Source: a virus. From it: a DNA stretch of 29,078 nucleotides. Made by a program: the position numbers and the translations under genes. Every line of letters starts with the position of its first letter. Positions within the stretch are counted from its first letter, which is position 1. The stretch spans positions 1-29,078 of the IMG/VR virus record IMGVR_UViG_3300013131_000184; one strand, given 5' to 3'. Below the pieces are notes generated by a model that had not been told where the DNA came from, did no database searches, and worked only from the letters and a program-made list of their open reading frames with translations. Below, in pieces: positions 10,754 through 28,966 of this stretch.

Positions 10754-12637
10754 TTAATAGGAAACTACATTACCTCGAATATCTGAATTAGGATATTTAA
10801 CTTCAAAAATACTAGGGTCTAATGATGGATATATAACACCATTTCTAGTAGCTGTCTGTAAATTATAAACATTACCGGAATATCCAGCAACAGTATCATA
10901 TAAATTATTAAATGTAACACCTATAACAGATTGAACGCCTTTTACATTTGCTAGCAATGTCGTTACATCTGATTTCATTATAGGTTGGTTGATTTGCCAT
11001 TTATCTATATTAAAATAATTTTTTACAGCATTAATACATTTTAATAAAACTTCATTGCTATTAAAATTAGGTAATACCGTAATTTGGAAATCTATACCGA
11101 TATTAATTATGAATGCATTTTTAATATTAACAGCATCTGTTAAAATTCGATAATAATCTAGATATGTTTTTAAATTCTCTTTAACTGCGTTATTTAAATT
11201 AATTAATCGTTTATTAGCATCATACCCCAACACATACATATTCATTGCTAATGGGTTAGCAGTAGTCTGTGTGATATTTTGTCGTTGGTTTATTTGATCA
11301 TCTGGAACTATATATGCTTTTGCAACACTTCCATATTTAGGTGGCATTGAATATGCTCTAACAATATAATCTTCTTTAGTTACTAAACGATTTTGAGTAG
11401 CAAAATTTGCCATTGCATTGTTTTTAATTTCTTGTATGCTATCATTAGTTTTAGCTCCAGCCGCTGGTTCCGGATTATTAACTGCTAATGTACTTTTTAC
11501 AAAGTTTACAACGCCTACATTATTTATAGAATTAACATTATCATTATATTCTACATTATCAATTAATCTTAATGTATTCGCAGAAACATTGTCAGCAAAT
11601 CCATTACCGATAGTATATGTAACTGTTAATGTTGTATTAGATGGGGCTTGCCCATATGCTCTAGTATATAAAAAATTTGATGGATCTATATCTATATTAA
11701 TATCTCGACGAAATGCAGATAATCCATTACCTACATTATCTGGATTAGGTATAATTTCTTCATCATTATTATCCGATATACCTGCTCCAAATTGTAATTC
11801 TAATTTACCATCACTACGTAATCTAGTTATATAACGTTTCGATGTTTTCTTTAATTTTAATAAACTAGGTGAATTAGACCGATATTGATATAAATCCGGG
11901 TCATTTTCTATTAAATTAGGAACTTCTTCAAATATAGTATCCTGAGCCAAATACGGAACATGATACCAATTATCACCATCTGTTTCTTTTACAGATAATA
12001 TTTCTATAACATTTGAATCAGATAATACTACTTTATCATATGGTATCGGGGTCGAAAATGTAAAATTAGCAGTTTTAATTTGTCCACTTATAGCTTTAAC
12101 TGATTTTTTTAACATGTAGTAAACTGGTTGATTAGTAACATTGTCAGTTTCATATGCAGTTACCTCAGTCGGGTCAAATGAAGACGAAAATCTAAAATCT
12201 ACTGTATCTAAAGTACGAAACACCGCCGATCCATTTTGTTGTTTAATTCGCATTCCCGGTTTAATTGTTAATGCATAATTATAATCTGGTGCAATATTAG
12301 TTCCAGATCCAATTGCAGGAACTAATTGATATACATCTAAAGTAACGTGTGCTGGAATTGCATTATTTGGTACATATCCAACAGTTCGTGCTAAATCAAA
12401 TATATTCGATCGTTCAGTTGCTTGATCTAATAATGATTCTCGTAAATTTGTATCAGCATAATAAGTTAATACATCGCCAACATATGATGCTAATTCTAAA
12501 AAGATCATTCCAGGAGATGATTCATTAAAATCAGTATATGTTTGTGGAAAATATTGTTTTGTAAAATTTATAAGATTTTGTCTAATTTGTCCAAAATCTT
12601 TTCCTAAATATGCTATATCTTTTTTCGTAGTTTCCAT
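10754..12637 (-). CDS. 6: Baseplate wedge protein, T4 gp6 / baseplate J-like
   Basis: 627 aa, close to the T4 gp6 length. The N-terminal block (residues about 36-95: YTDFNESSPGMIFLELASYV, then DVLTYYADTNLRES, LLDQATERSNIFDLARTVGY) matches the J/gp6 signature 'D-x-x-P-G-x-x-x-L-E ... Y-Y-x-D ... A-x-x-x-x-N-x-x-x-L-A-x-x-x-G-Y'. A C-terminal part with NRLVTKEDYIVRAY and MPPKYGSVAKAYI also fits the family. gp6 dimers form the ring of wedges that holds the contractile baseplate together. It lies directly after the gp25-like gene, 10 bases away. This is one of the most secure calls in the window. Confidence 0.92.
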   Translation of the reverse strand: METTKKDIAYLGKDFGQIRQNLINFTKQYFPQTYTDFNESSPGMIFLELASYVGDVLTYYADTNLRESLLDQATERSNIFDLARTVGYVPNNAIPAHVTLDVYQLVPAIGSGTNIAPDYNYALTIKPGMRIKQQNGSAVFRTLDTVDFRFSSSFDPTEVTAYETDNVTNQPVYYMLKKSVKAISGQIKTANFTFSTPIPYDKVVLSDSNVIEILSVKETDGDNWYHVPYLAQDTIFEEVPNLIENDPDLYQYRSNSPSLLKLKKTSKRYITRLRSDGKLELQFGAGISDNNDEEIIPNPDNVGNGLSAFRRDINIDIDPSNFLYTRAYGQAPSNTTLTVTYTIGNGFADNVSANTLRLIDNVEYNDNVNSINNVGVVNFVKSTLAVNNPEPAAGAKTNDSIQEIKNNAMANFATQNRLVTKEDYIVRAYSMPPKYGSVAKAYIVPDDQINQRQNITQTTANPLAMNMYVLGYDANKRLINLNNAVKENLKTYLDYYRILTDAVNIKNAFIINIGIDFQITVLPNFNSNEVLLKCINAVKNYFNIDKWQINQPIMKSDVTTLLANVKGVQSVIGVTFNNLYDTVAGYSGNVYNLQTATRNGVIYPSLDPSIFEVKYPNSDIRGNVVSY

Positions 12638-12647
12638 TTATTGCCAA

Positions 12648-13091
12648 TCATTGAACTAACATTGTATTATCAGTTACAAATATTTTTATAGTATCCGTAC
12701 TAAAATTTTGAACGGTATATGTTAAATGTATTTCGACCGTATGAACTAATGTCGAATCATCTTCAAATGTTTTAATATCAATATTTTCTATAACAATATA
12801 TGGTAGCCAATATGATATTGGTCCTCGTATAGTGTCATCTATTGTTTCTTTAAATTCATGTGTGTTTGGTTGAAATAATAAACCTAATAAATCGGTACCA
12901 TACTCTGGAAGCATATATCGTTCACCGATTTGTGTTAATAAAAGGCTTTTTAAGTTTTCTTTCGCTTGTTCTGGAACAGTATATAATGTAGTAAAAATAT
13001 TATTTCGATTACCTATTTTTACTCCTAAGCCAACCGGATTAACCGTATTAGTTTGTTGTATAGGGGATACTGATTCATAAACAAATGCCAT
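12648..13091 (-). CDS. 25: Baseplate wedge protein, T4 gp25 / GPW family
   Basis: 147 aa (T4 gp25 is 132). The diagnostic stretch is about residues 46-73: KENLKSLLLTQIGERYMLPE, then YGTDLLGLLFQP, which matches the GPW/gp25 rule 'L-L-x-T-x-x-G-E-R-x-x-x-P-x-x-G-x-x-L'. The C-terminal half supplies the beta strands typical of the fold (LVHTVEIHLTYTVQ). gp25 family proteins attach the sheath initiation end to the wedge in phages, type VI secretion and related contractile machines. The gene is followed 10 bases on by the gp6-like gene, which is the expected partner. Confidence 0.92.
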   Translation of the reverse strand: MAFVYESVSPIQQTNTVNPVGLGVKIGNRNNIFTTLYTVPEQAKENLKSLLLTQIGERYMLPEYGTDLLGLLFQPNTHEFKETIDDTIRGPISYWLPYIVIENIDIKTFEDDSTLVHTVEIHLTYTVQNFSTDTIKIFVTDNTMLVQ

Positions 13092-18069: not shown

Positions 18070-19095
18070 TTATCCTATTAATATATTATTATTTTGACAA
18101 CATTCTACTCCGATCTGAATCAAAGTCTGCTCTTTTGCCTTAGCCTCTACCTCGATATCTAAATCAGCAACACCATAAGTGCAAGGAAGCTGAGTAATGT
18201 AGTCAGCATGAGCTTGCTCTTTGATCTTAGTAAACTCTTTATATTGCTTGTGAAATGTCGGCCATTGTGCAATATTCTCCATGGATATACCATGATGCTC
18301 AAACATACGTACAATAAGGATCTGTGCTTCGCGTCGGCGAGATTCTGAGTAATGAGTGCATTGAGTAACACCATGGCGTTGCCATGTCTCACGTGCCATA
18401 AAGAATGCTTCTTGTTCGGATAAGTCACCGGTATTGAAAGTATGGTGCCAATAGTCAAACGTAATCGGAATAGCAACCTCGGTATACAACATCTGATACA
18501 AGTCACGTACAGAATACATAGAAGCCTTGTCATCATTTTCTATAACAAGACGAGCCTTAAGATTGTCAGACAACCGATCATAGTTTTGCAACCAACGTTG
18601 CACCGTAGTGTGCTTGTCGCCATAAGTAGCACCGACATGAATATTGATAAGATTGTCAAAGCTAGGAGCAAAACCCATAAGGTCAAACAATTCAGAATGA
18701 CGTTCTAAACCAATAATAGAATTTTCTACAACAACCGGATCGGGACTACCTAAGATATGGAACGGACCAGGATGAGTAGTAAGGCGATGGCCATGGGCAC
18801 GTGCATAATCACCAGCAGCTCGTAAGTGCTTAGTAATTTCATCTATACCTGGCAAATCTTCTAAACGATAATGATTCCAACGAGGAAACAATTCGCTACC
18901 GACACGAAATAAACGAATACCTTGTCGCTCATTCCATTGCAGAATAAGGAGTAAGTCCTTAGCATTAGCTAAAGAAATGTCGGATGCTAATTGCATACCG
19001 CCGAGTTTGAATTTGCGATCGATCATAGTGCGACCGGTGCGAATACCTTGTGAAGAAAGTTGCATATTGATACAACAATAACCGTAACGAATCAT
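18070..19095 (-). CDS. uvsE: UV-damage endonuclease (UVDE)
   Basis: 341 aa from ATG (MIRYGYCCINMQLSSQGIRT); a TTG 13 codons upstream is less likely because the family starts at 'R-x-G-Y-x-x-x-N'. UVDE TIM-barrel motifs appear in order: LQWNERQGIRLFRVGSELFP, HGHRLTTHPGPFHILGSPD, INIHVGATYGDKHTT, ARLVIENDDKASMYS, ITFDYWHHTF and THYSESRR, which carry the metal-binding His/Glu/Asp residues. The enzyme nicks DNA 5' of pyrimidine dimers, starting alternative excision repair. Phage copies protect injected or replicating DNA in sunlit habitats. The gene uses noticeably more G/C in third positions than its neighbours and lacks a ribosome site of the usual type, suggesting separate acquisition. Confidence 0.95.
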   Translation of the reverse strand: MIRYGYCCINMQLSSQGIRTGRTMIDRKFKLGGMQLASDISLANAKDLLLILQWNERQGIRLFRVGSELFPRWNHYRLEDLPGIDEITKHLRAAGDYARAHGHRLTTHPGPFHILGSPDPVVVENSIIGLERHSELFDLMGFAPSFDNLINIHVGATYGDKHTTVQRWLQNYDRLSDNLKARLVIENDDKASMYSVRDLYQMLYTEVAIPITFDYWHHTFNTGDLSEQEAFFMARETWQRHGVTQCTHYSESRRREAQILIVRMFEHHGISMENIAQWPTFHKQYKEFTKIKEQAHADYITQLPCTYGVADLDIEVEAKAKEQTLIQIGVECCQNNNILIG

Positions 19096-19197
19096 AGGAT
19101 TTTTTTTATAATATAAGAAAATTATTTCAAACAACCAAATTTCATGTTTTTTTATTATATCGATATTTATTAGAAAGGAACCTTAAGGGAATATAAC
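19096..19197. promoter_or_regulatory. Divergent intergenic region between uvsE and the plus-strand gene
   Basis: 102 A/T-rich bases with T-runs. On the plus strand ATATTTAT (19163-19170) is followed by AAAGGAACC and then AAGGGAATATAAC before ATG. Promoters for both directions probably lie here; no clear -35 is seen. Confidence 0.55.
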
Positions 19198-19872
19198 ATG
19201 AAAAATCTATTATCAGAAAATTTATTAAGATTTGGTGTAAAAAACCTAACCGAATCTGCTAAAAAAGAATTAATTGTTAAATCTATAATGGAAACAATTG
19301 ATCAACATGGTTTACGTAACGTAATTAAAAATAAATTAACAGAGCAAGATCCTAATATACCAACTGCAGATGATATAGTAGTAAGACCTAAAATGCAAGA
19401 TGCTGGTAATAAACCATTACCTGGATTTGCTAAAGGTAGCAAACTTAGATTAGGAACATTACGAGCTAAGCAAGGCCCGGCTGTATTTAAAGTACAAGCA
19501 CCAGGAGTTCAAGCATATGAACCGGAATGGACTATCAACGATGCATATTCGATGATAACATACGATGCAAATGGTCAACGGGTAGTAGGAGCATATCTTA
19601 CTTTAACAAATTCCGAATTAGGTGCACTAAAAATAGTAACAGGTGCTGGTAATACTTTTTATAATGTATCATATACACCAGCTCCAAATGCTAAGAAATA
19701 TGAATTTCCAGTTGGTACATTTGGTACGGATCAGGCAGGGCCGATAAAGGTTGTTGATAATATGACTAGTAGTCTACTCGGTATCGCTGGTTCACAAACT
19801 AATCCAAATGTATATAGTAAATCTCCAATTAGTGCAATGAAAAAGGCAATACAAGTAATGCCTAAACAATAA
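19198..19872 (+). CDS. Leader-bearing virion/internal protein, only plus-strand gene
   Basis: 224 aa. The first ~50 residues are a helical leader (MKNLLSENLLRFGVKNLTES, ending NVIKNKLTEQ) with three (L/I)-x-E sites: LLSE|N at 5-7, NLTE|S near 19 and KLTE|Q near 49. These match T4 prohead-protease sites and the leader of internal head proteins. After it comes a Pro/Gly-rich stretch (DAGNKPLPGFAKGSKLRLG) and a beta-rich body (WTINDAYSMITYDANGQRVV). The gene has its own promoter element and a strong terminator 20 bases past the stop, so it forms a monocistronic unit. Capsid-internal protein is the best guess; no enzyme motif seen. Confidence 0.8.
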   Translation: MKNLLSENLLRFGVKNLTESAKKELIVKSIMETIDQHGLRNVIKNKLTEQDPNIPTADDIVVRPKMQDAGNKPLPGFAKGSKLRLGTLRAKQGPAVFKVQAPGVQAYEPEWTINDAYSMITYDANGQRVVGAYLTLTNSELGALKIVTGAGNTFYNVSYTPAPNAKKYEFPVGTFGTDQAGPIKVVDNMTSSLLGIAGSQTNPNVYSKSPISAMKKAIQVMPKQ

Positions 19873-23339: not shown

Positions 23340-24158
23340 TTACTTTTTTTCTAAGAATTGTTGCAATCTTTTTTGCGATTTGTGGAATTCATATGATTGC
23401 TGTATTTGTTTAGATGTTAAATTCAATTTCATCTGCAATATATCTAATATATCAGCAATTACACGTTCTTTTTGATGGGCAGTTTTGGTTTTTCTAGCAA
23501 TTAATTTAATAAATCGCTCAATATGACGTACATATTCAGTCGGTAAATCATCCATAATCCTAGTTTTTTCAATGTAGTTAGATTTTTTAGACGAAGCTTT
23601 TTTATTTTTCGTTTCTAACATTAAATTTTTAGCAATATTTACAGATTCTTTTAATATATCACCATATTTTACAACCCAGGATACCTCAGTTGGTGGAGCT
23701 GGTGGTGGTGGAGTTGCTTCAGCGCTGGCCTCAGCTGGTGGAGCACCTGCCGCACCTGAACCAGATTCTATACTTTTTCGTTCTTCGTCGCCTAATCCTT
23801 TAATATCATCTAGATCTAACTGTAATTCTATGGTATAATCATTATTACGACCCCAACCAGTATATGGTACTAATTTAATAACTTTGCGTTTTAATAAACT
23901 AAGCAATATTCTCGGTGTAAGATTTAAATCTTTTCCAGATCTAGCAATGAATTCTCGTATACCAATGTCAGATACTGAGTAAATTATACCTAAATTAGTT
24001 GTCCCGCGAGCATCGAATTTACCCAAAAACATTTTTTCAGCAGGTGTGAACAATGAACTTTCAGCATCCATTGGTGCATTATCTGTTTCTTGTGCAGGAG
24101 CTTCTGCAATCATTTGTTTTAGAGTAGATTCGATGATGTAATATTTGCGGGAATTCAT
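23340..24158 (-). CDS. Protein with putative cleaved leader and Pro/Ala linker
   Basis: 272 aa. The start MNSRKYYIIESTLKQMIAEA contains a possible prohead-type cleavage site MIAE|A at residues 16-19. A folded region follows to about 120 (FTPAEKMFLGKFDARGTTNL, SVSDIGIREFIARSGKDLNL, PRILLSLLKRKVIKLV), helical and reminiscent of a winged helix. Residues 131-158 are a Pro/Ala/Gly linker (ATPPPPAPPTE). The C-terminal 110 residues are basic helices (ETKNKKASSKKSNYIEKTRI, SYEFHKSQKRLQQFLEKK). DNA binding is plausible from charge and shape. Nothing assigned with certainty. Confidence 0.75.
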   Translation of the reverse strand: MNSRKYYIIESTLKQMIAEAPAQETDNAPMDAESSLFTPAEKMFLGKFDARGTTNLGIIYSVSDIGIREFIARSGKDLNLTPRILLSLLKRKVIKLVPYTGWGRNNDYTIELQLDLDDIKGLGDEERKSIESGSGAAGAPPAEASAEATPPPPAPPTEVSWVVKYGDILKESVNIAKNLMLETKNKKASSKKSNYIEKTRIMDDLPTEYVRHIERFIKLIARKTKTAHQKERVIADILDILQMKLNLTSKQIQQSYEFHKSQKRLQQFLEKK

Positions 24159-24160
24159 AG

Positions 24161-24346
24161 TTAAATTTCTTTTGTTTCTGCTAATTGAGTTGAACGATAC
24201 TTAGTTGCTAACTTTTTTAATTCATTGATAGATTTTCTAGCAATAACTCCGGCTTTTTTAACTTGTTTAGTTTGAAATCTGTCATGATTTTCTTTAAACG
24301 TTAACCAATGAGATTCCATAATTTCGTAGATTTCTTGTGATGTCAT
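24161..24346 (-). CDS. Histone H1-like (Hc1-type) small protein
   Basis: 61 aa from ATG 24346 (MTSQEIYEIMESHWLTFKEN), preferred over the upstream ATG at 24406 because AAAAAGG lies 5 bases before it and the longer frame would overlap the preceding gene by 46 bases. The body (KQVKKAGVIARKSINELKKL, ATKYRSTQ) follows the Hc1 pattern 'K-x-x-K-A-x-x-x-x-R-K-x-x-x-x-L-K-x-L-A-x-x-x-R'. Hc1-like proteins are small basic DNA-binding proteins common in Bacteroidota and their phages. It may compact phage or host DNA. An ATATTTAT element overlaps the end of the gene upstream. Confidence 0.6.
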   Translation of the reverse strand: MTSQEIYEIMESHWLTFKENHDRFQTKQVKKAGVIARKSINELKKLATKYRSTQLAETKEI

Positions 24347-24359
24347 ACTAACCTTTTTA

Positions 24360-24572
24360 TTATTTATTATAAATATCCGATTGTGAAAATCGGTCCATGA
24401 ATACATGAATGTTTGGCGTTTTAATTTGATATATAGTATATTCAGTTAATTCTAAATATACCTTTTCATTTTCTTCATATATTTGTATAATATGATCTGC
24501 ATTAATAAATCGTTGTTGGATCGTGCCATCTGATTTAATCATATTAATTGATATGAAGTATGGTTTATTCAT
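24360..24572 (-). CDS. Small protein, FlbD-like pattern
   Basis: 70 aa: PYFISINMIKSDGTIQQRFI, then NADHIIQIYEENEKVYLELT and MDRFSQSDIYNK. The 'I-N-A-D-H-I-x-x-I' core with flanking beta strands resembles the small FlbD-like family. Its ATG overlaps the stop of the 187-aa gene (TAATG), so the two are translationally coupled. Function unknown. Confidence 0.65.
   Translation of the reverse strand: MNKPYFISINMIKSDGTIQQRFINADHIIQIYEENEKVYLELTEYTIYQIKTPNIHVFMDRFSQSDIYNK
24369..24376 (-). promoter_or_regulatory. ATATTTAT element upstream of the Hc1-like gene
   Basis: Coding-strand octamer 22 bases before the ATG; it is also the DIY codons near the end of the preceding gene, followed by AAAAAGG. 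Confidence 0.4.
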
Positions 24573-25135
24573 TAATCACCTAAACTACCTCTATGATATT
24601 TGCCACTTGCTTTATCAGCATCAATCATACTACCGATACCAGCTGATGCTGGTTTATTAGTTGTCGTACCAGATAATTGGTTAACTAGTTTCATAACTTT
24701 AAGATTTAATTCGCGTGCTTGGCTACTAGTTAATTTTTCAAACGTACGGTTTGCTGAATCTGTACAATATTTTTTAATTAGTTTTTGTATAACTGTTGCA
24801 TGTTCAGGTCGATTCTTTATCATATATTTTATACCATTTAAATAAATGCGACCATCTTTATCATCATTTGCTAATTGGTATTCGCTTAAATCAATTGAAT
24901 CTTGTATATTCGATGGAATTTGATCCCATTCATTTGAAATGTAAGTATTAACAAGATCCGAACCGTTATTACCCGTGACCGCTAACAGTGCATGCTCGCG
25001 ATCAGATTCTGGCATATCTGCCCAAATTTCATCGGCATTAAAGTGACTGCCTTCATTTAGTAGATTTTTAGCTCGTCGCAATTCTTCTAATAGAATTTTA
25101 AAATGTTTAGGATTATTTGAATCGAAAATTTTCAT
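24572..25135 (-). CDS. Phage protein with leader-like N-terminus
   Basis: 187 aa from ATG 25135 (MKIFDSNNPKHFKILLEELR), preferred because AAGGAAA lies 6 bases upstream and the longer frame would run through the small basic gene. The N-terminal ~30 residues are a basic amphipathic helix ending RAKNLLNE|GSHF, a possible (L/I)-x-E cleavage site. The remainder is acidic/helical (FNADEIWADMPESDREHALL, NNGSDLVNTYISNEWDQIPS) with a Thr/Ser/Gly tail (GTTTNKPASAGIGS). No family recognised. Might be another internal head protein of the leader group. Confidence 0.75.
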   Translation of the reverse strand: MKIFDSNNPKHFKILLEELRRAKNLLNEGSHFNADEIWADMPESDREHALLAVTGNNGSDLVNTYISNEWDQIPSNIQDSIDLSEYQLANDDKDGRIYLNGIKYMIKNRPEHATVIQKLIKKYCTDSANRTFEKLTSSQARELNLKVMKLVNQLSGTTTNKPASAGIGSMIDADKASGKYHRGSLGD

Positions 25136-25681: not shown

Positions 25682-25987
25682 TTATTTACGAGTTGCACCG
25701 CCGATAAGATTTTTTTTCAAACGACTAACGAATGATTCATCGATGTTTTTTGCAATAGTATCGCGACGATTTTGTAAATAATCATCCGATTCATCTTCTT
25801 TACCATCGTTGTTAATATCAGCATCTTCTTTTCCTACCGGATCTAACGCTTCCGCTGTAGTTTCCGTTTCTTCTGCTTCTGCCAAATTTGCGGCGTGTGT
25901 GTTTATTGCATCTTGCAATGTAGGTAAAGACCCATCAGCTTTACGTTCCCATGCAAATCCTTCTAGCAATGTTTTTAATTTTGTCAT
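25682..25987 (-). CDS. Small leader-bearing protein with EF-hand/dockerin-like loop
   Basis: 101 aa. It begins [10 protein letters not shown], a variant of the leader family of the cassette, followed by [18 protein letters not shown]. The centre is acidic ([20 protein letters not shown]) and contains [19 protein letters not shown], a D-x-N-x-D-G-x-x-D-x-x-D loop typical of calcium-binding EF-hand or dockerin repeats; only one loop is present. The tail is basic ([13 protein letters not shown]). AAAAGGA and an ATATTTAT element precede the ATG. The same loop-plus-leader combination is seen in some large marine phages. Internal head or virion protein is inferred. Confidence 0.75.
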
Positions 25988-26001
25988 TTGTTTCCTTTTA
26001 T

Positions 26002-26009
26002 ATAAATAT
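26002..26009 (-). promoter_or_regulatory. ATATTTAT element upstream of the EF-hand-like gene
   Basis: Coding-strand octamer 14 bases before the ATG, followed by AAAAGGA; overlaps the stop of the cell-wall enzyme gene. Confidence 0.5.
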
Positions 26010-27595
26010 CATCGATTTGTATTTGATACATGTATATGATTCCAATGGTTACCACCTGTATCAGACCGCCATATAAATCCTTTAGCATTGCCAGATTCGC
26101 CCCATTTATATCCTAATGATTTTAATGCTTCGATAACTTTATCTCCATTTGCCATGAACGATGCACCACCCGATCCGCCTAATCCTTTATTTTTACCATT
26201 ACCACCAGAATTACCTTGTCCATTAAACTCATCTAAATCAACACCTGTACCTGTCATATGTCTACTTTGTTTGGTACTATCTTTAACATTTTTAGCATGA
26301 CCAGTTTTTGCAGTACCAATTCTAGCAGTTACTCCGGCAATCTCTAATGCTTCTATAATATCGTTAATTAAATTAGGATTAATGATTCCAGCTTCGAAAT
26401 CTTTTTTAGCTCTGGAACTAAATGATAATTTACTATTTTCAACAGATGGTAGTACCCCATTAAATTTAGAAGTAGTAGTATCTCCACCGACTGGGCTAGT
26501 GTCACCTGTATCGTATTTATTTAATCCATATGATTTTATTATACTAATTAATTTCCTTGCATAATCGCTACCAGTAGCATATCCTGCACTTTGTAATCCG
26601 GTTGCCCATCCTTCATAGTCTGTTATTTTCAGTTTAAATAAATCAGAATATCTTCCATTTTTTACTAAGAATTTACTATGGTCTTCGAATGACTGAGCAG
26701 CATCTGGATATTTACGGAAACAATCTTTTGCATTATCATCTTTAGCATATACCTTTTCTCCAGACCAGCTATGACACTTAATTCCAAAATAATTATTAGC
26801 TTTTCTAGATAAATATGATTTACCCCATCCAGATTCTAATCCTCCTTGTGCTAATGTAATACTAGCAGGAATACCATATTGTTTCATTTGCGCAATTGCT
26901 GCATCTTTCCACATATTAATGAATGCTGCGGCGTTTGCAGGCACTGGTCCTAGATCTGGTATACTATCTAATGATGTAGTATCAGCCGTATCTGCATCTA
27001 TAGTTTGTTCAGCATCCTGTGTATTTAATACAGTACCGAATTTATCATTAATATAATTTATAACACGTTTCTGTATTGCGCGTAATAAATTAGCACTTAA
27101 AATACCAGCTTTTGATTTATCTTTGGTATATGGAATTGTTTCAATAACAACATCAGTGCTTAATGAATTTTTTAAACGTTCATAAATAGTTACTAATTCA
27201 GAAGTTTCAGTTTCAGCATCCAATGATGGCGTGACTATGCCAATGGTATATGCATTAAATGATTTTGCAATAGAAACGGCTTCATCAATAAAACGAAGTT
27301 CAGAATCCAAATCAGTTGTTTCGATTTGATCAGCATCTACCTGAATAACTACGACGTTATATGTATCTTTTATTTTGCGTCGCATTAAACGTAATAATTT
27401 TGTTGCACTAATATCTTGCAATCCCACAATATTACCAGCTACTAATTTAGATTTAACTAATTGGTATGCATATCCATATTTAGATGCGGTTTGTTGATCT
27501 CCGATAAATAAAACATTCGGTTTCTTAACTTCGGTAGTTTTTTTAGTTTTATCAGATGCTGGTTGTTCTAATAATAAAGATTTTAATCGTATCAT
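26009..27595 (-). CDS. Three-domain cell-wall enzyme: SGNH-like, glucosaminidase, M15 peptidase
   Basis: 528 aa. Leader MIRLKSLLLE|Q. Residues 27-185 look like an SGNH-hydrolase fold (PNVLFIGDQQTASKYGYAY, YNVVVIQVDADQI, AYTIGIVTPS), but the nucleophile Ser of 'GDS' is Gln, so it is probably inactive or a binding module. Residues about 222-358 are a FlgJ/LytG-type glucosaminidase with catalytic Glu254 in LAQGGLESGWGKSYL and the usual NYFGIKC and YPDAAQSFEDHSKFL blocks; it would cut the glycan strand. Residues about 390-528 match peptidase M15 (D-Ala-D-Ala/L,D-type): His446 and Asp453 in SRHMTGTGVDLD and HIH at 520-522. It could breach or lyse peptidoglycan; the leader suggests packaging in the head. 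Confidence 0.9.
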   Translation of the reverse strand: MIRLKSLLLEQPASDKTKKTTEVKKPNVLFIGDQQTASKYGYAYQLVKSKLVAGNIVGLQDISATKLLRLMRRKIKDTYNVVVIQVDADQIETTDLDSELRFIDEAVSIAKSFNAYTIGIVTPSLDAETETSELVTIYERLKNSLSTDVVIETIPYTKDKSKAGILSANLLRAIQKRVINYINDKFGTVLNTQDAEQTIDADTADTTSLDSIPDLGPVPANAAAFINMWKDAAIAQMKQYGIPASITLAQGGLESGWGKSYLSRKANNYFGIKCHSWSGEKVYAKDDNAKDCFRKYPDAAQSFEDHSKFLVKNGRYSDLFKLKITDYEGWATGLQSAGYATGSDYARKLISIIKSYGLNKYDTGDTSPVGGDTTTSKFNGVLPSVENSKLSFSSRAKKDFEAGIINPNLINDIIEALEIAGVTARIGTAKTGHAKNVKDSTKQSRHMTGTGVDLDEFNGQGNSGGNGKNKGLGGSGGASFMANGDKVIEALKSLGYKWGESGNAKGFIWRSDTGGNHWNHIHVSNTNR

Positions 27596-27598
27596 ATA

Positions 27599-27979
27599 CT
27601 AGGCTACTTTATTTAAAGTTAATTGTTTGGTAGGTGTAATAGATTGTGGAGCTGAATTTTTTATTTGATTTGTTATATTTTCCATTTGATCATGCTCAAT
27701 TTTCATTGATTGATTTTCACTAGTAATAATGTTAAAATCTGTTTTATTTTGATGTACGCTCACCGACTGTAATAAAACAGGCCCTGAGTAAAGACTCGTA
27801 TCAACATGTACTTTATAAAAGTATGTCTTGTTGTTATATACAATTTTTAAAAATCCTGAATATTTAGCATTAGGATAATATAAACCTTTTTTCGGATCAT
27901 TGTATTTAATTGGTACGGTTGATAATGTTACTCCATTAAACCCGATGCCTTCTGATAATAATTGTTTTAAGCGTATCAT
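27599..27979 (-). CDS. Leader-bearing protein of unknown fold
   Basis: 126 aa. Leader MIRLKQLLSE|G. The rest is beta-rich (IVYNNKTYFYKVHVDTSLYS, GPVLLQSVSVHQNKTDFNII) with a polar helical end. No family recognised. The ATG follows the ATATTTAT element by only 4 bases. The gene lies 3 bases before the cell-wall enzyme in the same transcript, which, with the shared leader, suggests both proteins go to the same place. Confidence 0.75.
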   Translation of the reverse strand: MIRLKQLLSEGIGFNGVTLSTVPIKYNDPKKGLYYPNAKYSGFLKIVYNNKTYFYKVHVDTSLYSGPVLLQSVSVHQNKTDFNIITSENQSMKIEHDQMENITNQIKNSAPQSITPTKQLTLNKVA

Positions 27980-27983
27980 ATTA

Positions 27984-27991
27984 ATAAATAT
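27984..27991 (-). promoter_or_regulatory. ATATTTAT element upstream of the 126-aa leader gene
   Basis: Coding-strand octamer 4 bases before the ATG, too close for a promoter of this gene; a translation-start or leader role fits better here. Confidence 0.35.
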
Positions 27992-27992
27992 C

Positions 27993-28532
27993 TTATACAG
28001 TATAAGTTACGAAATATTCTGTGATAATACCACCGCCGGTATTGACTACAACGCGACCTGGTCCTTCTAAGTTCTTTGCACTACCAACAGCTTGTTTAAC
28101 AGCATTCGGTCCTGGATCATGTCCCCAACCTCCTCTGTGATTCAATTGATATATCTGACTAGCATCTACCGCAACAAACGGAATCCATATGTTCATATCA
28201 TACGTTTTATCGTTTTTTACACAATTAGATTCTATAGCATTGATATTAGGTTTTAATCCTCCTTTATATAAAAATGGATTAACTTCACACACAACAACAT
28301 TAAATGCTTGGTGCAAAGAATCACCCTTACCATTTTTTGCATGAGATATAGCATAACCAGATCCTGGTCCTACATAATGTAAATGCATTCCAGCATCATT
28401 CATACTAACAGTTATTTTAGGTCTCCCGTCTTGGCCGTTCCAATAACCAGTTCCACCAGAAGCTTTCCAATTCTTGCAAGAAGTCCAAGATGACCCAACT
28501 TGTTCAGCCAATAAATGTTTCATTCGTATCAT
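27993..28532 (-). CDS. Leader-bearing protein with His/Trp-rich globular region
   Basis: 179 aa. Leader MIRMKHLLAE|Q. The mature part is Trp/Gly/His-rich and compact (TSCKNWKASGGTGYWNGQDG, ITVSMNDAGMHLHYVGPGSG, IYQLNHRGGWGHDPGPNAVK) with Cys at about 19, 82 and 104. Histidines in MHLHY, NHRGGWGH and a carboxylate neighbourhood could bind metal, but no catalytic family is recognised. Next gene in the leader cassette, 13 bases before the 126-aa gene. A capsid-delivered effector is possible; this is speculation. Confidence 0.75.
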   Translation of the reverse strand: MIRMKHLLAEQVGSSWTSCKNWKASGGTGYWNGQDGRPKITVSMNDAGMHLHYVGPGSGYAISHAKNGKGDSLHQAFNVVVCEVNPFLYKGGLKPNINAIESNCVKNDKTYDMNIWIPFVAVDASQIYQLNHRGGWGHDPGPNAVKQAVGSAKNLEGPGRVVVNTGGGIITEYFVTYTV

Positions 28533-28537
28533 TTTAA

Positions 28538-28545
28538 TAAATATA
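28538..28545 (-). promoter_or_regulatory. ATATTTAT element upstream of the 179-aa leader gene
   Basis: Coding-strand octamer about 5 bases before the ATG (ATATATTTATTAAAATG). Confidence 0.35.
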
Positions 28546-28687
28546 TAGCACGTTGTAAAGCGGTTGTAGTAAGCAGTAAAACAGTGCGCCCTTTCAGGTC
28601 CGCACTAATTACTCGAACATACTACATGCACAGTAAAAATGCGTACCGATGAGATACACATTGTGGCAGATTGTGTGTTTATCCGTA
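28546..28687. other. Unassigned non-coding stretch in the leader cassette
   Basis: About 140 bases with no credible frame and less AT-rich than the surroundings. It holds a GC-rich hairpin near 28584-28605 and an ACACA/TGTGT arm pair. No tRNA cloverleaf could be built. May carry a small RNA or 5' leader structure. Confidence 0.4.
28575..28605 (-). terminator. Possible terminator hairpin
   Basis: On the minus strand GTGCG / CGCAC arms with an internal CCT/AGG stem, followed by TGTTTTACTG; the T-run is weak. Confidence 0.4.
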
Positions 28688-28966
28688 CTACTTGCGTTCT
28701 AACACGTTTAAATACAACATTGCTACATTACCAGATTTAGTACGTATAAATAATATAGTTTCATCTTCAGCCGCAGGATTAACGAATTGAATGAATTTGC
28801 TATTGTTGTTGTTTATTAATTTTTCTATAACAGCCGCGGCGTCAACCATTTGTTCTAACTGTTGTGATAACCATGCATCATACCCCACAATGATGTCATC
28901 GAAGTGTTCCGCCATCCACTGTGTCAATGCATCTTAAGATTCTAATAAAGATTTAAATCGTATCAT
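28688..28966 (-). pseudogene. Leader-bearing gene with TAA directly after the leader
   Basis: An ATG at 28966 opens MIRFKSLLES, the cassette leader, then TAA (28934-28936) stands in frame and the frame continues as DALTQWMAEHFDDIIVGYDA and on to KSGNVAMLYLNVLERK. Without the stop the product would be 91 residues plus one unknown. The body is an acidic helical N-part and a hydrophobic strand-rich end; no family recognised. A downstream start at TTG (28927, 79 aa) or ATG (28915, 75 aa) exists, but neither has a clear ribosome site, so the leader plus stop looks like a disrupted gene or a regulated one. Reads are needed to exclude error. Confidence 0.6.

What the first reader, a model, noticed from the sequence alone, without database searches (positions are those of the whole stretch)
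25682..28966. Shared MIR-x-K-x-LL-x-E leader on a tandem cassette: putative capsid-targeting sequences
Four genes in a row begin MIRLKSLLLE|Q, MIRLKQLLSE|G, MIRMKHLLAE|Q and MIRFKSLLE|S, and the fifth begins [10 protein letters not shown]. The bodies behind these leaders are unrelated, so the leader is a portable tag. It ends in (L/I)-x-E, the cleavage rule of T4 gp21 prohead protease, and resembles in length and character the N-terminal targeting sequences of T4 internal proteins. Similar candidate sites are at the start of the plus-strand gene (19198), the 272-aa gene (23340) and the 187-aa gene (24572). The set would be a repertoire of proteins packed into the head and injected with the DNA. 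The targeting role is inference from known T4 biology.
Basis: partly seen in the sequence, partly recalled or inferred. Interest (0 to 1): 0.8.

Follow-up and report, generated by a model that had tools for sequence, protein, structure and literature searches.

The report
Interchangeable head-packaging tags on phage proteins
Several neighbouring genes of an uncultured T4-like phage carry the same short front-end tag, which very probably loads unrelated proteins into the virus head and is then cut off; the tag is widespread in environmental phages and may mark proteins that are injected into the host.

Summary
Three genes begin MIRLKSLLLE, MIRLKQLLSE and MIRMKHLLAE; the fourth copy is a 10-codon mini-ORF ended by TAA; a fifth gene has a shortened form. 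The tag is far above chance: 118 tagged bodies fall into 79 sequence-unrelated clusters. Of 47 tagged contigs of at least 25 kb, 28 encode a gp21-like prohead protease, against 2 of 46 controls. The conserved positions are those of T4's capsid-targeting sequence (4, 7, 8 hydrophobic, Glu 10), and relatives' capsid proteins carry a matching [LIV]xE where T4 gp23 is cut. In a published virion proteome (S-CREM2) all 5 genes with this shape were detected; in a second phage 1 of 3. Other leader classes exist, one copying the scaffold's C-terminal tail, and the same body occurs with swapped leaders. Most likely these are capsid-targeting propeptides cut by the prohead protease. Nothing was measured for this phage, and injection is inference. 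The 29-kb fragment holds no protease gene, but all 10 searched relatives of at least 38 kb do. An expanded variant of a known kind.

The parts
27566..27595 (-). Class A leader MIRLKSLLLE on the 528-aa gene 26009-27595 (N-terminal domain whose tagged homolog in L558 matches GDSL lipase; glucosaminidase; weak M15 peptidase)
   Evidence: homologs in L061, L557, L558 and L561 keep an N-terminal leader ending in [IL]xE, those in L562/L563 a degenerate one
27950..27979 (-). Class A leader MIRLKQLLSE on the 126-aa gene 27599-27979 (body without a known family)
28503..28532 (-). Class A leader MIRMKHLLAE on the 179-aa gene 27993-28532; AlphaFold2 gives the leader low confidence (first block mean 53) and the whole model mean 88.8
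   Evidence: no fold match
28934..28966 (-).
28688..28912 (-). Open frame downstream of the TAA; relation to the mini-ORF unknown
   Evidence: no homolog in held loci
25961..25987 (-). Shortened class A leader MTKLKTLLE on the 101-aa gene 25682-25987; homologs carry full-length forms such as MIKLKNLLKE|GFAWER
19198..19254 (+). Class D leader MKNLLSENLLRFGVKNLTE on the 224-aa gene 19198-19872
24102..24158 (-). Candidate propeptide MNSRKYYIIESTLKQMIAE of the 272-aa gene 23340-24158; site mostly conserved in homologs
25052..25135 (-). Candidate propeptide ending KNLLNE|G of the 187-aa gene 24572-25135; site conserved in homologs
10754..13091 (-). Baseplate wedge genes (gp6-like and gp25-like) that place the record among T4-like phages and were used to find relatives

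Best explanation
The leaders are capsid-targeting propeptides of a T4-type head. During late infection the short amphipathic N-terminus brings each tagged protein to the scaffold core of the prohead (inferred by analogy with T4 IPIII, where residues 4 and 7 direct targeting). The S77 (gp21-like) prohead protease then cuts after the Glu of [LI]xE at position 9 or 10, the same kind of site as on the major capsid protein, and leaves the mature cargo inside the head (site match shown, cutting inferred). Cargo is exchangeable because only the leader matters: unrelated bodies share a leader, and the same body is found behind different leader classes, with homology starting just after the Glu (shown by sequence). 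At least some cargo is probably injected with the DNA, as with T4 IPs and Alt (inferred).
For: Portability: 118 class A bodies in 79 unrelated clusters; 118 class D bodies in 51; 7 body families with swapped leader classes, homology starting a median of 5 and 4 residues after the Glu. Peptide-level selection: synonymous Leu codons at 4, 7 and 8 vary, TTA 57-70% against 53% in the bodies; among 30 further M-I-[KR]-x-K starts that did not match my search pattern, 7 and 8 are hydrophobic in 30 of 30 and Glu stands at 10 in 20 and at 9 in 3. T4 rule: targeting by residues 4 and 7, processing by 8 and 10 (PMC9026906 section 2.6 read); in 92 kb of T4 the exact shape occurs on two ATG ORFs of at least 60 aa, gp24 and Alt, both named as losing an N-terminal propeptide to gp21 in PMC5694885 (passages). 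Protease: 28 of 47 versus 2 of 46, all 10 relatives of at least 38 kb. Capsid site. A core-region gene near gp21 keeps a Glu at the leader-end column in 13 of 13 aligned members. Virion proteome: 5 of 5 in S-CREM2. AlphaFold2: leader apart from a confidently folded body.
Against: I found no mass spectrum, cleavage or packaging measurement for this phage or for any phage with the MIRxKxLLxE form. In S-SCSM1 only 1 of 3 exact-shape proteins is tagged as a virion protein, and the exact shape was fixed after I had seen the S-CREM2 N-termini. In Mel-JY01 the looser shape is not significantly enriched at N-ends (12 of 246 ORFs, p = 0.07). Leader genes are not significantly nearer gp21 than chance: 11 of 50 within 5 kb, 8.3 expected, 957 of 5000 simulations as high. 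Of 110 tagged proteins scanned, 3 match Phage_lysozyme, 2 Phage_lysozyme2, 1 Glucosaminidase and 1 Peptidase_M23 (members may overlap), enzymes usually placed in the tail or in lysis. The residue after the Glu is varied, not small as at most capsid sites. The motif is short, so descent from T4's leader cannot be shown. Contigs counted include related ones.
Confidence: 0.74

Rival explanations
1. The leader directs proteins into the virion but not into an injected head cargo: tagged proteins are core, neck or tail components, and the Glu site serves assembly only.
For: Up to seven of 110 tagged proteins match cell-wall hydrolase families; a homolog of the window's 528-aa protein matches phage tail lysozyme; S-SCSM1 virions contain a glucosaminidase and a D-Ala-D-Ala carboxypeptidase (PMC9602691 passages).
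Against: At least 86 of 110 tagged proteins match no Pfam family and bodies are highly varied; in S-CREM2 the exact shape is on 0 of 24 detected structural proteins, 5 of 28 other detected ones and 0 of 167 undetected ones; S-SCSM1's virion lysozyme and carboxypeptidase do not bear the shape.
Confidence: 0.13
2. Targeting tag that is not cut: the Glu is part of the binding helix and the protein stays full length.
For: The residue after the Glu is varied; T4 IPIII with Asp at 10 is targeted but not processed (PMC9026906 section 2.6).
Against: Body homology begins just after the Glu; of the 7 unascertained leaders without Glu at 9 or 10, 5 have an [ILM]xE a few residues on, by eye, as T4 ipI has at 17-19; the capsid protein has the matching site.
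Confidence: 0.07
3. Non-virion tag: the amphipathic N-terminus anchors proteins to the inner membrane or acts as a translation-start or stability signal.
For: The peptide is short and amphipathic; AlphaFold2 makes residues 2-11 a helix.
Against: Link with S77-protease phages, [LI]xE end, virion detection for the same shape; the class D pattern has 3 matches in 84,980 bacterial and archaeal genomes, none at an N-end.
Confidence: 0.04
4. DNA-level repeat: a promoter-plus-start unit was copied in front of several genes and the peptide is a by-product; the mini-ORF at 28966 is one such copy.
For: The mini-ORF; similar AT-rich upstream stretches before three of the four MIR starts.
Against: Codons vary while the peptide is kept; the 25 bases upstream of the IMG/VR leaders are mostly unalike.
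Confidence: 0.02

Closest known systems
T4 capsid-targeting sequence (CTS) of internal proteins IPI-IPIII and the propeptides of Alt and gp24, cut by gp21 (PMC9026906 section 2.6 read; PMC5694885 passages)
   Same: N-terminal, about 10 residues, hydrophobic at 4, 7 and 8, Glu at 10, followed by unrelated bodies; T4 letters fetched: gp24 MAKINELLRE|S, Alt MELITELFDE, ipI MKTFKEF...ITE|A (bars are inferred sites).
   Different: Leu instead of Phe/Tyr types, dozens of unrelated bodies, and longer leader classes (ENMRRFGTKNLxE; RMQxLAGI) that I did not look for in T4. The constancy of I2 and K5 comes from my search pattern and is no finding.
Virion-associated enzymes of T4-like cyanophages (S-CREM2, S-SCSM1)
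   Same: Non-structural enzymes in virions start MK.F..FL.E, the same four positions.
   Different: Phe instead of Leu, different host group; the main text of the S-CREM2 paper holds none of the words targeting, N-terminal, propeptide or cleav.
Propeptides of giant-phage ejection proteins (SPN3US, phiKZ)
   Same: Protease-cut N-terminal propeptides on head cargo, cut after Glu; two paralogs share an identical 15-residue start (PMC5694885 passages).
   Different: Several over 100 residues long, A-x-E motif in SPN3US; no short tag shared by unrelated bodies in the passages I saw.
T4 gp22-type scaffold (my reading of the gene before gp23 in these phages)
   Same: Class B leaders carry the motif that ends this protein, RMQxLAGI(I) or a variant.
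   Different: At the N-terminus of other proteins and mostly followed by [IL]xE.

Membership tests
T4-type capsid-targeting sequence | Extreme N-terminal leader of about 10-19 residues on otherwise unrelated proteins | tested here: met
   stays N-terminal when a homolog has an insert behind it (L581)
T4-type capsid-targeting sequence | Hydrophobic residues at 4 and 7 (targeting), 8 and Glu at 10 (processing) | tested here: met
   window leaders (the fourth and fifth have Glu at 9); 20 of 30 unascertained leaders with E10, 3 with E9
T4-type capsid-targeting sequence | gp21/S77 prohead protease in the same phage | tested here: inconclusive
   no match in the 29-kb fragment; present in 10 of 10 relatives of at least 38 kb
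T4-type capsid-targeting sequence | Leader end matches the protease site used on the major capsid protein | tested here: met
   relatives' gp23: QLISE|A, QIVSE|A, QLLDE|A or T, QLVKE|A or S aligned with T4 FLTE|A; cut not observed, and the window has no gp23
T4-type capsid-targeting sequence | Tagged protein present in virions | tested here: inconclusive
   other phages only: 5 of 5 and 1 of 3
T4-type capsid-targeting sequence | Propeptide removed, and leader alone sufficient to package a foreign protein | not testable with these tools
   needs experiment
T4-type capsid-targeting sequence | Common descent with T4 IP leaders | tested here: inconclusive
   too short to decide
Peptidase S77 (Pfam PF03420) | Profile match over the curated cut-off in phages that carry the leaders | tested here: met
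   14 well-known cellular control genomes gave none

The most novel reading that the evidence does not exclude
A large group of uncultured T4-like phages uses a modular packaging code: at least three interchangeable N-terminal tags (MIKLKxLLxE; M..KNILAENMRRFGTKNLxE; MKxxLNExxRMQxLAGIxxE), one of which imitates the C-terminal tail of the scaffold protein, load an open-ended and fast-changing set of enzymes into the head for injection. Reading the tags would list the injected effector sets of thousands of unknown phages directly from sequence.
Probability: 0.5. Interest if true: 0.85.

Novelty: new variant of a known kind. Interest (0 to 1): 0.7.

Why it matters
Which of the many unknown proteins of a phage travel in the particle and act first in the host is a long-standing question. 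If the tags are read correctly, it can be asked from sequence for uncultured phages, and tested by simple virion proteomics. The leaders also give small, swappable packaging signals and a hypothesis, scaffold-tail mimicry, for how cargo gets into a prohead.

Tried and rejected
Clustering near gp21: not supported overall (50 leaders on 28 records), although in some contigs tagged genes sit in the head module. A stricter cyanophage pattern that demanded certain residues at 5 found 0 of 28 detected non-structural proteins and 2 of 167 undetected ones; the looser shape (6 of 28 against 8 of 167, p = 0.007) and the exact-position shape are reported. The four positions come from the T4 review, but the exact pattern was written after I had seen the S-CREM2 and T4 N-termini, so S-SCSM1 (1 of 3) is the only fresh test. 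Relatives of the 528-aa protein by back-translated patterns: none confirmed; found later by the genome search in 9 of 29 records. The 179-aa protein: 1 of 29 of those records, 7 loci in IMG/VR. Fold of the 179-aa body: confident model, no match with Foldseek E <= 0.001 in PDB or BFVD and best VIA-align Z 3.8; a first model from two sequences was poor. Phage tail sheath in the window: none. The window's 224-aa protein has no match in the phage records. Paper searches for a description of such leaders in other T4-like phages listed none that I recognised by title or abstract; for the two phage names gave unrelated papers; subscription papers and preprints are not held.
Full report
What is there. 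The window is the whole of a 29,078-base linear virus record. Its genes include gp6-like and gp25-like baseplate proteins, and the gp6-like protein matches Microcystis phage Mel-JY01 (53%) and Flavobacterium phage immuto (40%), both with T4-type head genes in their annotation. On the minus strand three genes in a row start with the same decapeptide shape, MIRLKSLLLE, MIRLKQLLSE and MIRMKHLLAE; a fourth copy, MIRFKSLLES, is followed at once by TAA; and a fifth gene has [10 protein letters not shown], a one-residue-shorter form of what several homologs carry (for example MIKLKNLLKE|GFAWER). A similar one, MIKLKQLLNEVVPEAAHH, exists in Mel-JY01.

Is it more than chance? Of the 127 matches read, 109 start an ORF of at least 50 aa. 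After removal of the leader, 118 tagged bodies fall into 79 blastp clusters. To avoid the bias of the search pattern I listed other ORFs in the same loci that start M-I-[KR]-x-K but do not match it: 30 cases, hydrophobic at 7 and 8 in all 30, Glu at 10 in 20 and at 9 in 3; of the other 7, 5 have an [ILM]xE a few residues on by eye. Across the loci the looser shape (hydrophobic-xx-hydrophobic-hydrophobic-x-Glu) occurs in residues 2-22 of 179 of 1529 ORFs that lack the class A leader, against 2.8% of internal windows; in control loci 46 of 1107 against 2.6%. For single phages: immuto 23 of 225 (p = 1e-6), T4 (92 kb) 9 of 125 (0.015), the window 5 of 41 (0.02), Mel-JY01 12 of 246 (0.07, not significant) (all). 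Leucine codons in the leader vary synonymously, so the peptide, not the DNA, is kept.

What it goes with. Of 47 tagged contigs of at least 25 kb, 28 carry a Peptidase_S77 (gp21-type) gene; of 46 control contigs, 2 do over the cut-off and a third only below it (Fisher p = 3e-9, with the reserve that contigs of related phages are not independent). Twenty relatives of the window found through gp6 (70-91% identity) have the leader in 18, and the protease in all 10 that are 38 kb or longer; the 10 without it are 27.4 kb or shorter. The fragment itself has none. In some contigs tagged genes stand in the head module near gp21; one core-region gene there, within about 5 kb of gp21 in the six records where I read both, keeps a Glu at the leader-end column in an alignment of 13, its Mel-JY01 ortholog having another N-terminus with VxE at that column. 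But over 50 leaders there is no significant nearness to gp21, which resembles T4, whose ipI and alt lie away from genes 20-24.

The cleavage site. In relatives the N-terminal part of gp23 aligns with T4's, and T4's FLTE|A stands over QLISE|A, QIVSE|A, QLLDE|A or T, or QLVKE|A or S. The window's leader KQLLSE|G is of the same make. The T4 review states that in IPIII residues 4 and 7 direct targeting and 8 and 10 processing (PMC9026906, section 2.6 read). In the 92 kb of T4 that I fetched, only gp24 and Alt among ATG ORFs of at least 60 aa have this exact shape; both are named as losing N-terminal propeptides to gp21 in PMC5694885 (passages). T4 ipI shows a bipartite form, MKTFKEF and then ITE at 17-19 (that this is its cut site is inferred from the 10-19-residue propeptides of the review).

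Further leader classes. In 84,980 bacterial and archaeal genomes the same pattern gave 3 matches, none at an N-end. Some leaders join both classes (MIKLKNILAENMRRFGTKNLNE). A third class came from immuto, whose two proteins MKKQILSEQFKRMQFLAGIITES and MKKQILSEQFRRMQKLAGIITES carry the motif that ends the protein encoded just before gp23, which I read as the gp22 scaffold. A scan for R-M-Q-x-L-A-G-I, also stopped at its limit, gave 128 occurrences: 84 within 25 residues of a C-end, mostly such tails, 46 within 40 of an N-end (a few of these being tails or other ORFs cut by the contig end), and 2 in neither place by my reading of the list. This suggests cargo that imitates the scaffold tail, an inference. 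Of the contigs of at least 25 kb that I gave the search, 7 of 17 with class D and 4 of 9 with N-terminal class B have S77.

Leader swapping. Comparing bodies across classes gave 75 pairs in 7 families in which the same body stands behind different leaders; homology starts a median of 5 and 4 residues after the Glu. A clear case is MIKMKNLLKE|QDLSDLENKLGFDSGAN against RFGTKNLRE|VDLNDLENKLGFDSGAN. Some pairs in the largest family may be loose matches. For the window's 179-aa protein, three of seven IMG/VR loci have MIRLKQLLME, MIRLKRLLHE or MIRLKQLLTE, one keeps MIRLKSLLE in front of an insert of nearly 40 residues, and three have other starts. Its AlphaFold2 model is confident (mean pLDDT 88.8) except for the first ten residues (53), so the leader looks like an appendage; the fold of the body has no match.

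Virion evidence. For T4-like cyanophage S-CREM2, Table 3 of PMC10665884 (section 18 read; other parts as passages) lists 52 virion proteins. Applying the exact shape (hydrophobic 4, 7, 8; Glu 10) to its 219 annotated genes gives 5, all detected: SAM hydrolase MKDFDSFLEE, a kinase MKRFDAFLTE (GTG start), a cytidylyltransferase MKNFSSFLTE and two unknown proteins, MKDLHSFLTE and MQTFSMFFSE (chance 6e-4, with the reserve that the exact pattern was written after I had seen these N-termini). The authors write that such enzymes may be encapsulated but also that they may not have been separated from virions; the main text does not use the words targeting, N-terminal, propeptide or cleav. In S-SCSM1, 3 of 282 genes match, 1 tagged as virion protein, MKSFLQFLKE of NMNAT; the two others are RecA and a 106-aa protein MKTFKQFMSE. 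Six of 6 NMNAT-like homologs read, out of 496 records matched, begin MK.F..F[LFI].E. This supports the shape in a related system, not the Leu form of the window.

Cargo. Of 110 tagged proteins, 3 match phage lysozyme, 2 tail lysozyme, 2 zeta toxin and 2 AAA_33 (possibly the same two), and single ones glucosaminidase, M23 peptidase, NUDIX, FMN reductase, HEAT repeats and PrlF; at least 86 match nothing. PHROGs hits include endolysins and a few tape-measure families. Enzymes fit an injected set, cell-wall hydrolases fit less well, although S-SCSM1 virions hold such enzymes (PMC9602691 passages).

Verdict. The leaders are very probably capsid-targeting propeptides of the T4 kind, in a richer and more modular form than I know from T4. 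Targeting, cutting and injection are inferred for this phage; the portability, the positions, the protease link and the matching capsid site in relatives are shown by sequence.

Noticed in passing
window, upstream of the genes at 2166, 8813, 13095, 15425, 19198, 25682, 27599 and 27993: ATATTTAT lies 12-35 bases before many gene starts on the coding strand, and before 154 of 1557 other ORFs of the leader loci; it looks like a late promoter and is only about 12 bases before two of the MIR starts.
   Followed up: partly
24161-24406 (-): 81-aa gene matches Pfam Hc1, histone H1-like (25.9 bits, cut-off 23.5); homologs suggest the true start is at MTSQEIYE.
   Followed up: no
L230 and L235, around gp21: Another recurrent N-terminus, MKITKSQLKEIIKEEL and variants, on several small genes; 28 of 1671 ORFs in leader loci and 0 of 1107 in control loci fit a loose pattern for it.
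   Followed up: partly
Mel-JY01 62733-62789 (L007 13233-13289): A leader mini-ORF of 18 codons, MIKLKQLLNEVVPEAAHH, like the one at 28966 of the window; decay product or free peptide.
   Followed up: no
Mel-JY01 60276-62718 (L007 10776-13218): Three ORFs (two with class A leaders, one with MIKLMSLVTE) share a body starting ISDRVWH; the two tested have no Pfam match.
   Followed up: no
L558, L561, L562, L563: A small gene (MFEKLISTLMASRDQAH and variants, Pfam DUF5856 in L562) stands beside the homologs of the window's 528-aa gene in relatives.
   Followed up: no
18070-19134 (-): Endonuclease-family gene (phrog_8420, E = 2e-38) in the tail-module region; UV-damage endonuclease is my recollection, not a call.
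   Followed up: no
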